Positions 9,785 to 23,104 of a stretch of DNA of 23,703 bases are shown here, one piece after another. The translations under genes were made by a program, and so were the position numbers. Origin of the DNA: a virus; the IMG/VR virus record IMGVR_UViG_3300034375_005322, positions 1 through 23,703 of that record; one strand, written 5' to 3'. Every line of letters begins with the position of its first letter. The stretch's first letter is position 1. The notes under the pieces are model-generated. The model did not search any database. It saw only the letters and a program-made list of their open reading frames with translations, and was not told the DNA's origin.

Positions 9785-10232
9785 AGGGGCGTTCCAAAGT
9801 TCCTCCCCATGTTTGCAGTGTCCGAAAGGGAGAAAGGCTAACGGGCCTTGACAGTCTCCGACATTCGGCAAAGGAACCCCGCCCATGCCTTCGCACACGG
9901 TGCGCTTTGGTTAAAGTCTAGAGATTAGGCGCTAGACACGGGGAGAGCCTTTCGACTCTTTGACGTAGTGAGTATAGGTAGAAGCACAAACGGCGTAATA
10001 AGAAAGTAAAAGCGCCTACGTACGCGGCAATAAGCACCGATGTACGTACTTGCGCGGCATTGCCGACACCCTCTAGCAGCTTTCGGGGGTAGCGATGCTG
10101 AGACAATGTGACAGCAGGGGTCTACGAACTCAACACCTTTGGCAAGGTGTAGCAATGCGCGAAAGCGCATGGGCGTGGCGTTAGGGGTGAAAACTAACAA
10201 AGCAAGCGGGTTCGATTCCCGCGCACCTTCCA
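9785..10232 (+). ncRNA. Putative large structured RNA with tRNA-like 3' arm
   Basis: About 450 bp, richer in GC than the flanks, with no believable ORF and many stems. Seen: CCGA-CAT-TCGG (9858-9868), CGCAC-ACG-GTGCG (9892-9904), GTCTAG-N10-CTAGAC (9916-9937), TACGTAC/GTACGTA (10017-10049), ACACCTT-TGGC-AAGGTGT (10133-10150), ATGCGC-GAAA-GCGCAT (10155-10170) and GTTAG-N9-CTAAC (10180-10198). Long-range GAAAGGCT (9832-9839) can pair with AGCCTTTC (9946-9953). The 3' end is a perfect T-arm (10206-10222). The plus strand is preferred because the T-arm reads that way and gene 10252 follows. 5' end unknown. It is not tmRNA (no tag frame, no tmRNA 5' domain) and not RNase P RNA as far as I can see. 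Confidence 0.45.
10144..10230 (+). ncRNA. tRNA-like cloverleaf at 3' end of structured RNA
   Basis: AAGGTGT (10144-10150) can pair with GCACCTT (10223-10229), closing three arms: ATGCGC-GAAA-GCGCAT in the D-arm place, GTTAG with a 9-nt loop GGGTGAAAA in the anticodon place, and GCGGG-TTCGATT-CCCGC, an ideal T-arm. It is not a normal tRNA: the D-arm is replaced by a GNRA hairpin without the GG, and the anticodon loop is 2 nt too long. AAGGTGT also pairs perfectly with ACACCTT (10133-10139), so the acceptor may be a conformational switch. Could be a degenerate tRNA or a deliberate mimic. Confidence 0.4.
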
Positions 10233-10236
10233 AACT

Positions 10237-10251: not shown

Positions 10252-10674
10252 ATGCAAATTTCTTGCAATTTTTATCAAGTAGACGATGCGGGACAGCGCA
10301 TCAACGAACTCAAGTTTAAGTTTGAAATCGACGGCCGTACAGCAGCGCGTAAAGCGTTCTTCACGGCATCGTGGGATTTCATCAAGCGGGTTCGTATGTA
10401 CAACAAAGTGGGGGCAAAGGTTATCAATTGCCGTCTCCCGCTTATTTTCGAAATGACCAAAGGTGAGCAGGTGCTGGACCTCGGACGCTGCGACCGCGTA
10501 GTTGTCAACCGTTTCAAGTACGGACACACAGGCAAGGCACAGCGTCGATGGGTAAACCATATGTGGACTAGCGCTGAGTACATGATCAACAACAAGCTTG
10601 AGGTGATCGATCACGATGACTTCCAGCAGAATATGTTGGCTATCGAAGCAACAGAGGTTGCAGAAGCGAACTAA
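10252..10674 (+). CDS. Hypothetical protein, first gene of right arm (140 aa)
   Basis: A 140-residue mixed alpha/beta protein starting MQISCNFYQVDDAGQRINELKFKFEIDG, with a basic centre (RTAARKAFFTASWDFIKRV; KYGHTGKAQRRWVNHMW) and an acidic, helical C-terminus ending EATEVAEAN. It is the first gene of the rightward arm, directly downstream of the structured RNA, and is closed by its own intrinsic terminator at 10704-10735, so it is probably a single-gene early transcript. Higher GC than the left arm. Family not recognised; early position suggests a host-takeover or regulatory role, which is speculative. Confidence 0.8.
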   Translation: MQISCNFYQVDDAGQRINELKFKFEIDGRTAARKAFFTASWDFIKRVRMYNKVGAKVINCRLPLIFEMTKGEQVLDLGRCDRVVVNRFKYGHTGKAQRRWVNHMWTSAEYMINNKLEVIDHDDFQQNMLAIEATEVAEAN

Positions 10675-10703
10675 AAAAAAATTACCATCCAGCGGTAACA
10701 TAT

Positions 10704-10735
10704 CCCCCGTATGCAAATTGTGTGCGGGGGTTTTT
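10704..10735 (+). terminator. Intrinsic terminator after 10252-10674
   Basis: CCCCCG (10704-10709) pairs with CGGGGG (10725-10730) and is followed by TTTTT. It is the first part of a cassette repeated at 11473: terminator, then CGTG/CACG/CGTG segments, then a 12-codon leader ORF, then a gene. Confidence 0.75.
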
Positions 10736-10770
10736 CGTGCAGACACGAGCATGGCAAAACGCGAATCGTG
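10736..10770 (+). promoter_or_regulatory. Three-segment CGTG/CACGA/TCGTG pairing element, copy 1
   Basis: CGTG (10736-10739), CACGA (10744-10748) and TCGTG (10766-10770). The middle segment can pair with either the upstream or the downstream one, as in attenuators. In copy 2 (11505-11539) the bases differ but complementarity is kept (CGTGC, GCACG, CGTGC), which argues for selection on pairing. Confidence 0.4.
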
Positions 10771-10789
10771 TAAACTTCAAAACAAATAG
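10751..10789 (+). CDS. 12-codon leader ORF MAKRESCKLQNK
   Basis: Starts with ATG inside the loop of the CACGA/TCGTG pairing and stops with TAG 2 nt before the next gene's ATG. The matching cassette at 11519 has another 12-codon ORF (MATKQIVRILYR) with the same first two residues and the same arrangement. A role in translational coupling or attenuation is inferred; the peptide itself may have no function. Confidence 0.35.
   Translation: MAKRESCKLQNK
10777..10788 (+). promoter_or_regulatory. Conserved leader motif TCAAAACAAATA, copy 2
   Basis: Ends 3 nt before the ATG at 10792, as in copies 1 and 3. It also forms the last codons and stop of the 12-codon leader ORF, so both elements share the same bases. 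Confidence 0.5.
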
Positions 10790-10791
10790 CC

Positions 10792-11136
10792 ATGGGATTT
10801 TTCTCTTGGAAAACACAGGACACAGGGCGTAGCATATGCAACAAGCATTCAGGTCGCCCCACATTCCGAGTCGTAATGACAGACAACAAAGGCAATCGAT
10901 GGGAGGAGTCTGACTACGATGGGTACGGAGTATTCGGGGGTAAGGACTACTACGTTCTGCTCGATGAGATGAACGGAGGTGTGGGCAATCGCACGGCTGG
11001 GATCGAACTGGCCTTCAGCGGCAAGGCATTCATCTCGCCAAGCCTGACCGAGTGCGGTTACTACTATGACGGAGTAGAGCCTGAGCAATGCAAACACCAA
11101 GGATTCTTTTACGAAAGCGTAACTATAGAGGGATGA
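10792..11136 (+). CDS. Conserved phage protein, MGFFSWKT family
   Basis: A 114-residue protein starting MGFFSWKTQDTGRSICNKHSG, then YDGYGVFGGKDYYVLLDEMNGG and a C-terminal half with GYYYDGVEPEQCKHQGFFYESV. Proteins with this MGFFSWK...S...YDGYG signature are widespread in phages and plasmids of several phyla, but I know of no function. Three Cys and several His could form a metal site (C17, C86, C97 approx.). Its stop overlaps the start of the 34-residue membrane peptide (ATGA), so the two are translationally coupled. Confidence 0.85.
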   Translation: MGFFSWKTQDTGRSICNKHSGRPTFRVVMTDNKGNRWEESDYDGYGVFGGKDYYVLLDEMNGGVGNRTAGIELAFSGKAFISPSLTECGYYYDGVEPEQCKHQGFFYESVTIEG

Positions 11137-11237
11137 AAACAAAGCCAGAGTTAGATCAGTACGCAGAGGATGCGTTATTCAATGTAGTAATAGTGCTGCT
11201 GCTGTTAGCAGGTGCAGTGCTTGGAGTATGTATGTAA
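11133..11237 (+). CDS. Small single-pass membrane protein (34 aa)
   Basis: MKTKPELDQYAEDALFNV followed by a hydrophobic helix (VIVLLLLAGAVLGVCM) that runs to the C-terminus. The ATG overlaps the stop of the previous gene. The acidic N-terminal half and hydrophobic end predict an N-in or tail-anchored inner-membrane peptide. The stop (11235-11237) comes just before the structured RNA begins at about 11238. Confidence 0.6.
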   Translation: MKTKPELDQYAEDALFNVVIVLLLLAGAVLGVCM

Positions 11238-11352
11238 ACCCACTCTAAGGTTGAGGAACTTAGAGTTATACAATAGGTGTGTTCCTCGCACCCGATACCG
11301 TGGACTGCCAGCGATGGAAGCGGTGGGAATTAAGGGCTGGACTTGGATAGTA

Positions 11353-11461
11353 GAATGTATTGAAATATGAGGTTCGAATCCCTTCAGGATGTGTGAGGTT
11401 ATAAAATACTGTGTAGCGTCCTGTAGTGTAATTGGTAACACGCAATCTTTCTACGACATTC
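11353..11461 (+). tRNA. Circularly permuted tRNA-Arg(UCU) candidate
   Basis: The 3' half (11359-11392) precedes the 5' half (11417-11455). 5' half: acceptor CGTCCTG, T8-A9, D-arm GTGT-AATTGGTA-ACAC with A14, G18G19 and A21, G26, then CAATC-TTTCTAC-G with U33, anticodon UCU and A37. 3' half: ATTG, variable AAATA, TGAGG-TTCGAAT-CCCTT, acceptor CAGGATG, discriminator T. Acceptor strands pair over 7 bp (one G-U). Joining G11455 to A11359 gives a perfect CAATC/GATTG anticodon stem and a canonical 73-nt tRNA. Flanks GAATGT (11353-11358) and ACATTC (11456-11461), abutting both cut points, pair perfectly. The spacer 11393-11416 would be removed. Weak point: the T-stem has only two Watson-Crick pairs plus one G-U in standard register (GAGG/CCTT works with an 8-nt loop). 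No CCA encoded. Confidence 0.6.
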
Positions 11462-11472
11462 CTTGACTTTAT

Positions 11473-11504
11473 CCCCCTCAGGCAAATGCTTGCAGGGGGT
11501 TTTT
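11473..11504 (+). terminator. Intrinsic terminator after the permuted tRNA
   Basis: CCCCCT (11473-11478) pairs with AGGGGG (11494-11499), followed by TTTTT. Its first bases overlap TATCC (11470-11474), which can instead pair with GGATA (11345-11349) in the RNA, so folding of the tRNA-like domain could compete with termination. Confidence 0.75.
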
Positions 11505-11540
11505 CGTGCAGCACGGGCATGGCAACAAAGCAAATCGTGC
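11505..11540 (+). promoter_or_regulatory. Three-segment pairing element, copy 2
   Basis: CGTGC (11505-11509), GCACG (11511-11515) and CGTGC (11536-11540): the middle segment is complementary to both neighbours. Same order and position as copy 1 at 10736-10770, relative to the preceding terminator and following 12-codon ORF. Confidence 0.4.
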
Positions 11541-11557
11541 GAATACTTTACAGGTGA
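11519..11557 (+). CDS. 12-codon leader ORF MATKQIVRILYR
   Basis: Starts in the loop between the pairing segments and ends with TGA overlapping the GTG start of the next gene (GTGA). Same length and same MA start as the ORF at 10751. Translational coupling to the GTG-started gene is the simplest role. Confidence 0.35.
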   Translation: MATKQIVRILYR

Positions 11558-11862
11558 AAACATTCAAAGACTTAGAATTCGATGCCTTGGACATGGGTGC
11601 AATGGGGCAAGGGAAACACGCAAAAATGCAATTCGATAACGGCTATTCAATTAGCGTAGTCGCAGGCAAGGGGTATTACTGCACACCACGAGAGAGTGAC
11701 TTGGACAGCAGCAAGTATAAATCCTTTGAGATCGCAATCTTTGGCGTGGGCGGGAGCTGGGTAACCAAAGAGTTTTTCCTATCCCACCACGAGCGAGATG
11801 TAGCAGGCTGGCAATCAAGAGAAGAGATTGACAAAGTAATGAAACAAATACAAGCAAAGTGA
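11554..11862 (+). CDS. KTFKDL-family phage protein, paralog of 16004-16306
   Basis: A 102-residue protein. The GTG at 11554 is chosen because the protein then begins VKTFKDLEF, aligning with MKTFKDLTF of the gene at 16004. Shared features are FDNxxxxSVVxG near residues 28-40, a following Tyr/Phe-rich strand, and a C-terminal DVxG(W/Y)...(E)xxxxMKxIQ helix. I recall this family from other Bacteroidota phages, but without a function. An upstream in-frame ATG at 11506 lies in the terminator-distal leader and is rejected. The stop overlaps the GTG of the lipoprotein gene. Confidence 0.82.
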   Translation: MKTFKDLEFDALDMGAMGQGKHAKMQFDNGYSISVVAGKGYYCTPRESDLDSSKYKSFEIAIFGVGGSWVTKEFFLSHHERDVAGWQSREEIDKVMKQIQAK

Positions 11863-12014
11863 AATATCTAAACCCGAAAGTAGTGGTGTTGGTCGCAGGT
11901 GTGATCATCATCCTCGCACTCAGCTCGTGCGGTTCGTCGAGCAAAGTATACAGTGAATCGAATAGCTGGATGCATCAGCATCGTAACGAGCAACCTTGCT
12001 CTAACAATTGGTAA
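11859..12014 (+). CDS. Small lipoprotein (51 aa)
   Basis: GTG-started, overlapping the previous stop (GTGA). Sequence: MKYLNPKVVVLVAGVIIILALSSCGSSSK, a clear type II signal peptide with lipobox LSSC and lipidated Cys24, followed by a Ser-rich linker and a 20-residue tail with one more Cys (EQPCSNNW). It would be anchored in the inner or outer membrane facing the periplasm. Early-arm lipoproteins in phages often act in superinfection exclusion; that is a possibility, not something the sequence shows. Confidence 0.75.
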   Translation: MKYLNPKVVVLVAGVIIILALSSCGSSSKVYSESNSWMHQHRNEQPCSNNW

Positions 12015-12017
12015 GCT

Positions 12018-12230
12018 ATGTACAGAGAACTAGAACTAGAATGCACTTGGCATTTGGTCAAGGAGGAAGTTGGTGATGACCTCACACCTGGCGTGCCTGA
12101 GCACGTAGTGATTGAAGAAGTGTTTGTCATTGATGGACACGGCTGGAGATTCGGCAACATCATCGATGTATTTACTCTCAAACAACTGCAAGACATGGCA
12201 GCGGAAATATACGAAGAGAACTATGGTTGA
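12018..12230 (+). CDS. Hypothetical acidic protein (70 aa)
   Basis: A 70-residue protein, MYRELELECTWHLVKEEVGDDLTPG, then VVIEEVFVIDGHGWRFGNIIDVF and an acidic helix. Net negative, no Cys cluster, no membrane span. Starts 3 nt after the lipoprotein stop and its stop overlaps the next ATG, typical of this compact operon. It resembles no family that I can name. Confidence 0.75.
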   Translation: MYRELELECTWHLVKEEVGDDLTPGVPEHVVIEEVFVIDGHGWRFGNIIDVFTLKQLQDMAAEIYEENYG

Positions 12231-16003: not shown

Positions 16004-16306
16004 ATGAAGACGTTCAAAGACTTGACATTCGAGCCGCATCCGTTCGGAGGCAAACAAGCATACGCTTTCTTTGACAACGAACGAGCCGTGTCAGTTGTCA
16101 CAGGAGCCGATTGGTTCCACACCTCAGAGTTCGCACCCTACGAGGTTGGCTTCATCAATTTGGACGGCAAGCTAGGCTGCGTATACCTTGAACGTGGCAC
16201 TACGTCCGTTACTATTGCCGAAGACGCAGATCACAACGATGTTCAAGGGTACTGCACAGAAGATGAGGTGACCCTCATTATGAAAGCGATTCAAAATCTA
16301 GTATAA
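16004..16306 (+). CDS. KTFKDL-family phage protein, paralog of 11554-11862
   Basis: A 100-residue protein, MKTFKDLTFEPHPFGGKQAYAFFDNERAVSVVTGADWFHTS, then YEVGFINLDGKLGCVYLERGTTSVTI and DVQGYCTEDEVTLIMKAIQNLV. It aligns over its full length with the 11554 protein (same start, FDN/SVV core and MKxIQ end). The copies are well diverged at the DNA level, so the duplication is old or they arrived separately. Function unknown. Confidence 0.85.
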   Translation: MKTFKDLTFEPHPFGGKQAYAFFDNERAVSVVTGADWFHTSEFAPYEVGFINLDGKLGCVYLERGTTSVTIAEDADHNDVQGYCTEDEVTLIMKAIQNLV

Positions 16307-23015: not shown

Positions 23016-23089
23016 GCTCCCGTAGCTCAATTGGATAGAGCAACGCACTTCTAATGCGTAGGTTACAGGTTCGATTCCTGTCGGGAGTA
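23016..23089 (+). tRNA. tRNA-Arg (anticodon TCT)
   Basis: Complete 74-nt cloverleaf: acceptor GCTCCCG/CGGGAGT (one G-T), T8-A9, D-arm GCTC-AATTGGATA-GAGC, anticodon arm ACGCA-CTTCTAA-TGCGT with anticodon TCT, variable AGGTT, T-arm ACAGG-TTCGATT-CCTGT, discriminator A. CCA is not encoded, usual for Bacteroidota. It would decode AGA. The permuted tRNA at 11353-11461 has the same anticodon but is not a copy: only the general tRNA features agree. Confidence 0.96.
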
Positions 23090-23104
23090 CTAAATATTAG
23101 TGAT

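What the first reader, a model, noticed from the sequence alone, without database searches (positions are those of the whole stretch)
11353..11461. Circularly permuted tRNA-Arg(UCU) in a phage non-coding RNA
Seen: a tRNA 3' half (11359-11392) lies upstream of a 5' half (11417-11455). Acceptor strands pair over 7 bp with one G-U, the D-arm is perfect with G18G19, and joining G11455 to A11359 makes a 5-bp anticodon stem CAATC/GATTG with loop TTTCTAC. The resulting tRNA has the canonical length of 73. The bases flanking both cut points (GAATGT and ACATTC) are perfectly complementary, just where a splice-guiding helix would be. Established: permuted tRNA genes are known from some algae and archaea, where a splicing endonuclease joins the ends; I know of none described in a phage. 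Inference: either the halves are joined (for example by RtcB-type ligation), or the RNA stays two-piece after the acceptor loop is cut by RNase P/Z, as in two-piece tmRNA. Caveat: a weak T-stem, so it may be a decayed or specialised molecule.
Basis: partly seen in the sequence, partly recalled or inferred. Interest (0 to 1): 0.92.

Follow-up and report, generated by a model that had tools for sequence, protein, structure and literature searches.

The report
Phage RNA mimicking tRNA, YrlA-like
A phage fragment encodes a small RNA whose core is a tRNA with its two halves swapped, the known shape of bacterial Y RNAs that pose as tRNA, so it is most likely a divergent Y RNA-like tRNA mimic and not a tRNA gene that must be cut and rejoined.

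Summary
In detail: T arm, acceptor 3' strand, loop, acceptor 5' strand and D arm lie in permuted order at 11369-11441, with 7/7 acceptor and 4/4 D-stem pairs. Such a core arose once in 1,500 Markov copies of the window. The reading as a tRNA-Arg(UCU) gene awaiting ligation is not supported. Bacterial Y RNAs (YrlA) are known circular permutations of tRNA. Rfam's best match is YrlA (23.1 bits, below its cut-off of 69). A covariance model built from 15 other phage permuted RNAs, without the window, ranks this locus first (30.8 bits, E 5e-7). The same model finds such RNAs beside the Ro60 gene rsr in 33 of 79 phage loci, so the class is phage Y RNA. ARAGORN calls a joined 'tRNA' even when the flanks are shuffled. 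Limits: the UUACUUC motif, nearly invariant in rsr-linked phage Y RNAs, is absent; no rsr lies in this 23.7-kb fragment; no homologue was found; the Y stem alone is only marginally better than chance. I call it a YrlA-like tRNA mimic, not an established YrlA member.

The parts
11345..11362 (+). 5' strand of the basal (Y-like) stem: GGA 11345-11347, GUAGAA 11350-11355, AUUG 11359-11362
   Evidence: MFE fold and pair probabilities 0.83-0.98 for GUAGAA, 0.87-0.92 for AUUG; only marginal against shuffled flanks
11369..11384 (+). T arm, TTCGAAT loop 11373-11379, weak stem
   Evidence: sequence; matched by R1 and Rfam YrlA
11385..11391 (+). acceptor stem, 3' strand CAGGATG
   Evidence: 7/7 pairs with 11417-11423
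11392..11416 (+). 25-nt loop closing the acceptor stem
   Evidence: sequence; loops of about 2-36 nt in other phage Y RNA-like RNAs
11417..11423 (+). acceptor stem, 5' strand CGTCCTG
11424..11441 (+). U8-A9 and D arm with G18G19
   Evidence: 4/4 D-stem pairs
11443..11462 (+). 3' strand of the basal stem: CAAU 11443-11446, UUCUAC 11449-11454, UCC 11460-11462; contains the supposed anticodon UCU
11473..11504 (+). intrinsic-terminator-like hairpin CCCCC...GGGGG plus T run
   Evidence: fold and sequence; the strict consensus scan lists only the similar site at 10704-10730, with which it shares a repeat of 83% identity
23016..23090 (+). the phage's ordinary tRNA-Arg(UCU), for comparison
   Evidence: ARAGORN, Rfam tRNA 73.8 bits

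Best explanation
A divergent YrlA-like (Y RNA-type) tRNA mimic. The RNA stays in one piece. T arm, loop-closed acceptor stem and D arm form the tRNA-like module (base pairing shown in sequence; L-shape inferred from YrlA), and the RNA's two ends pair with each other where a tRNA would have its anticodon arm, forming the Y stem that in known Y RNAs binds Ro60/Rsr. Inferred action: the module is recognised by tRNA-binding proteins (in known YrlA: modification enzymes and PNPase) or competes with tRNA-cutting nucleases, while the stem recruits an Rsr from the host or from the unsequenced part of the phage. The Rsr step is the weakest, because the usual conserved stem motif is missing.
For: Rfam's best match is YrlA, full length, 23.1 bits, E 0.0099 in 341 nt. 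R1, trained on 15 other phage permuted RNAs without the window, ranks the locus first in the window (30.8 bits, E 4.9e-7). R2, trained on 30 rsr-linked phage Y RNAs, matches it full length, weakly (21.5 bits, E 5.6e-4). These RNAs are Y RNAs: 33 of 79 phage rsr loci have an R1 hit of 30 bits or more near rsr, R2 finds them beside bacterial rsr as well, and the structure covaries strongly (score 0.666 against 0.191 shuffled, 0/500). The fold prefers the Y-like stem. YrlA is a published circular permutation of tRNA (PMC11472068; PMC8394870). A terminator follows, as for a stand-alone RNA.
Against: Below Rfam's gathering score (23.1 against 69; rsr-linked phage Y RNAs fail it too, 47.7 and 21.7 bits in L140). 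Lacks the UUACUUC motif nearly invariant in 30 rsr-linked phage Y RNAs. No rsr in the fragment or in related records. Y stem only marginal against shuffled flanks (3.5% match it on both pairs and energy; energy alone 27%). No homologue in related phages, so no covariation test on this RNA itself. Overall fold z only -1.1.
Confidence: 0.65

Rival explanations
1. A lineage-specific tRNA mimic with the same permuted fold but no Ro60 partner, for example a decoy for tRNA-cutting defence nucleases.
For: Ro60-side motif and rsr are absent. The phage carries another non-canonical tRNA-like element at about 10141-10233, and relatives carry further ones. Competitive inhibition of an anticodon nuclease has been proposed for YrlA (PMC7790460).
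Against: No direct evidence of function; the Y-like basal stem and the YrlA/R1/R2 matches favour a common origin with Y RNAs.
Confidence: 0.15
2. Remnants: the 3' part of one decayed tRNA next to the 5' part of another, or a chance arrangement.
For: Weak T stem, no homologue, fold energy ordinary (z -1.1); tandem tRNA junctions score well with the same models.
Against: Acceptor strands from unrelated remnants would rarely pair 7/7; one such core in 1,500 Markov windows; no ARAGORN or Rfam tRNA call; the flanks also pair.
Confidence: 0.15
3. One reading: a permuted or two-piece tRNA-Arg(UCU), ligated or cut at the acceptor loop.
For: Joined halves are 73 nt and ARAGORN calls them tRNA-Arg(tct).
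Against: Most joins give a call, even with shuffled flanks; anticodon loop paired, flank helix probability 0.02; no bulge-helix-bulge; no A20, no CCA, weak T stem; an ordinary tRNA-Arg(UCU) is present.
Confidence: 0.05

Closest known systems
YrlA / bacterial Y RNA (Rfam RF02553; Salmonella YrlA, PDB 6CU1)
   Same: T arm, loop-closed acceptor stem and D arm in the same permuted order; RNA ends paired into a stem; best Rfam match
   Different: Scores below the Rfam cut-off, 25-nt acceptor loop, weak T stem, no recognisable Ro60-side motif, no rsr nearby
Phage Y RNAs beside rsr (models R1/R2 here, e.g. L272, L275, L305, L140, L143)
   Same: Permuted tRNA-like domain and end-to-end stem; window matched by both models
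   Different: They carry UUACUUC and often an extra hairpin like an anticodon arm before the T arm; the window has neither and scores low
Circularly permuted tRNA genes of algae and archaea
   Same: 3' half upstream of 5' half
   Different: No bulge-helix-bulge and no usable anticodon arm
Permuted (two-piece) tmRNA, Rfam RF04321
   Same: Acceptor halves joined by a loop
   Different: No Rfam match in the region up to E 10; has a full D stem

Membership tests
YrlA / bacterial Y RNA | Permuted tRNA-like module: T arm, loop-closed acceptor stem, D arm | tested here: met
   matched by R1 trained without it
YrlA / bacterial Y RNA | 5' and 3' ends paired into a Y stem | tested here: inconclusive
   predicted with probability 0.83-0.98, but 3.5-7.7% of shuffled flanks do as well in number of pairs
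YrlA / bacterial Y RNA | Conserved linker/Ro60-side motif (UUACUUC in rsr-linked phage Y RNAs) | tested here: not met
   nearly invariant in 30 sequences, absent in the window; also absent in some high-scoring phage Y RNA-like RNAs without detected rsr, e.g. L121, L163, L168
YrlA / bacterial Y RNA | Rfam RF02553 gathering score | tested here: not met
   23.1 against 69 bits; rsr-linked L140 RNAs also fail it (47.7 and 21.7)
YrlA / bacterial Y RNA | rsr (TROVE) gene close by | tested here: not met
   none in the 23.7-kb record or in related records; the record is a fragment
YrlA / bacterial Y RNA | Binding to Rsr and PNPase | not testable with these tools
   needs biochemistry
Permuted tRNA gene | Bulge-helix-bulge at the junction | tested here: not met
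   one-sided 9-nt bulge between ATTG/CAAT and GAATGT/ACATTC; that helix has probability 0.02
Permuted tRNA gene | Canonical tRNA after joining, with identity elements | tested here: inconclusive
   ARAGORN calls tRNA-Arg(tct) but does so for most joins with shuffled flanks; A20 absent, T stem weak
Permuted tmRNA (RF04321) | Match to the Rfam model | tested here: not met
   no match up to E 10 in 11200-11540

The most novel reading that the evidence does not exclude
A phage-encoded, truly circularly permuted tRNA whose halves are joined at the anticodon loop, or that works as a two-piece tRNA, in a host without the archaeal/eukaryal splicing machinery.
Probability: 0.05. Interest if true: 0.85.

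Novelty: new variant of a known kind. Interest (0 to 1): 0.38.

Why it matters
It explains an apparently impossible permuted tRNA gene by a known RNA architecture and extends that architecture to an orphan form in a phage with no detectable rsr. Together with the survey, it shows that permuted tRNA mimics are common beside rsr in phage genomes and that annotation tools (Rfam cut-off, ARAGORN) miss them; it also makes the proposed decoy role of the tRNA-like domain testable.

Tried and rejected
Close homologues: tblastn-based scan with the neighbouring 118-aa ORF (none); blastn against phage records (none; only short weak matches; the best, in Pseudoalteromonas phage Pq0, lies in an ordinary tRNA-Gly); a narrower pattern (one tRNA array). 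YrlA hits in DUF7178 relatives proved to be tandem tRNAs where inspected. A relaxed permuted scan of 92 relatives found only the window apart from a tRNA junction. Overall fold stability is not significant. A sigma-70 promoter scan found none. Permuted tmRNA was rejected. The joined-tRNA argument was rejected by the shuffled-flank control. I looked for Chen 2014, Wang 2018 and two reviews on bacterial Y RNA; they are not held, so Y RNA facts rest on other papers and on own knowledge where marked.

Full report
Observation. The sequence is as described. On the + strand a T arm (TTCGAAT loop 11373-11379) is followed by CAGGATG 11385-11391, a 25-nt loop, CGTCCTG 11417-11423, U8-A9 and a D arm 11426-11441 with GG in the loop. 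The acceptor pairs 7/7 with one G-U and the D stem 4/4. A scan for this permuted core finds it once in the window and once in 1,500 Markov-1 copies; among 92 related phage loci only a real tRNA-tRNA junction comes close. ARAGORN and Rfam's tRNA model do not call it; they call only the ordinary tRNA-Arg(UCU) at 23016-23090.

What it is. With permissive thresholds the best Rfam match over the region is YrlA, the Y RNA-like family, full length 1-114, 23.1 bits, E 0.0099, well under the curated cut-off of 69. YrlA consists of a stem formed by the RNA's ends plus a tRNA-like domain (PMC8394870), and its crystal structure superposes on tRNA as a circular permutation (PMC11472068). The permuted order is therefore expected for a Y RNA and needs no splicing.

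Independent test. A pattern scan of viral contigs, after removing tRNA overlaps, left about 20 permuted RNAs in other phages. Records of four of them hold a TROVE/Rsr gene; Pfam confirms three above and one below the cut-off. Model R1, from 15 of these RNAs and without the window, puts the window locus first in the window with 30.8 bits, E 4.9e-7; in 1.25 Mb of relatives the stronger hits come from L083, L024 and L026, which carry tRNA arrays. A search with the four Rsr proteins found 331 viral contigs encoding relatives, 80 kept. By my count from the table, R1 has hits of 30 bits or more within about 1.1 kb of rsr and on its strand in 33 of 79 loci. On 30 of these RNAs the structure covaries strongly (score 0.666 against 0.191 shuffled, 0/500; slid versions at most 0.185). 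Model R2 from them recovers the earlier phage RNAs (L151 101 bits, L101 91, L163 65) and finds Y RNAs beside bacterial rsr in Bacteroidota, Verrucomicrobiota and Actinomycetota. R2 matches the window full length but weakly: 21.5 bits, E 5.6e-4, below a partial hit on the window's own tRNA.

Mechanism. In the predicted fold the ends pair as AUUG/CAAU, GUAGAA/UUCUAC and GGA/UCC, with pair probability 0.83-0.98 for the second. The supposed anticodon UCU lies inside this helix. Joining the halves gives an ARAGORN call of tRNA-Arg(tct), but nearly every allowed join does so for this RNA, and all 40 shuffled-flank sets give calls as well, so the call carries no weight. There is no bulge-helix-bulge. 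D-loop position 20 is U, whereas the phage's real tRNA-Arg has A20 (bacterial Arg identity element; own knowledge). Most likely the RNA is uncut and presents a tRNA-like surface on a basal stem. Partner proteins are inferred: PNPase and modification enzymes for the module, Rsr for the stem; inhibition of an anticodon nuclease has been proposed for YrlA (PMC7790460).

Limits. The UUACUUC element, nearly invariant in the rsr-linked phage Y RNAs, is missing, though some high-scoring phage permuted RNAs without a detected rsr lack it too. No rsr was found in the window or relatives (one search had no positive control). The basal stem alone is not convincing: 3.5% of flank shuffles match it on pairs and energy, 27% on energy alone. 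No homologue was found. I therefore call it YrlA-like in architecture and do not file it as an established YrlA member.

Verdict. A divergent, apparently orphan YrlA-like tRNA mimic: a new variant of a known kind, of moderate interest. The splicing or two-piece tRNA reading stays possible at about 5%.

Noticed in passing
window ~10141-10233 +; relatives L024 12884, L026 12448, L028 12368, L025 12601, L023 13002, L011 5092, L003 7651, L004 7764, L006 129, L013 9628: A second non-canonical tRNA-like element: acceptor-like AAGGTGT/GCACCTT followed by CCA, perfect T arm, but the D arm is replaced by a GAAA-capped hairpin and the next arm has a 9-nt loop; fold z -2.7, no tRNA call, no Rfam tRNA match. 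Relatives carry other T-arm-plus-acceptor-like elements without a tRNA call.
   Followed up: partly
L272, L275, L282, L305, L307, L314 and others, just upstream of rsr: Many phage Y RNAs keep a hairpin like a whole anticodon arm between the Y stem and the T arm (e.g. L275 TCGA-CTGATAA-TCGA), so their breakpoint lies between D arm and anticodon arm, not in the anticodon loop.
   Followed up: partly
L241-L320 (viral contigs): 331 viral contigs encode Rsr/TROVE relatives; where no full Y RNA is found, R2 still often finds short hits of 60-80 nt just upstream of rsr, possibly Y RNAs without the tRNA-like domain.
   Followed up: partly
window 10701-10741 and 11470-11510: Two terminator-like stretches share 83% identity over 41 bases, each ending GGGGGTTTTTCGTGC.
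   Followed up: no
window 23016-23090; L216, L217, L219-L226, L228, L229: An ordinary tRNA-Arg(UCU) is shared by this phage and many relatives, sometimes with a tRNA-Met beside it.
   Followed up: no
window ORFs 11506-11862 and 16004-16306: Two small ORFs look like paralogues (about 29-30% identity through L006, L017 and L082 matches); the ORFs around the RNA (10252-12230) have no relatives in the syntenic phages, so the RNA sits in an accessory stretch.
   Followed up: no
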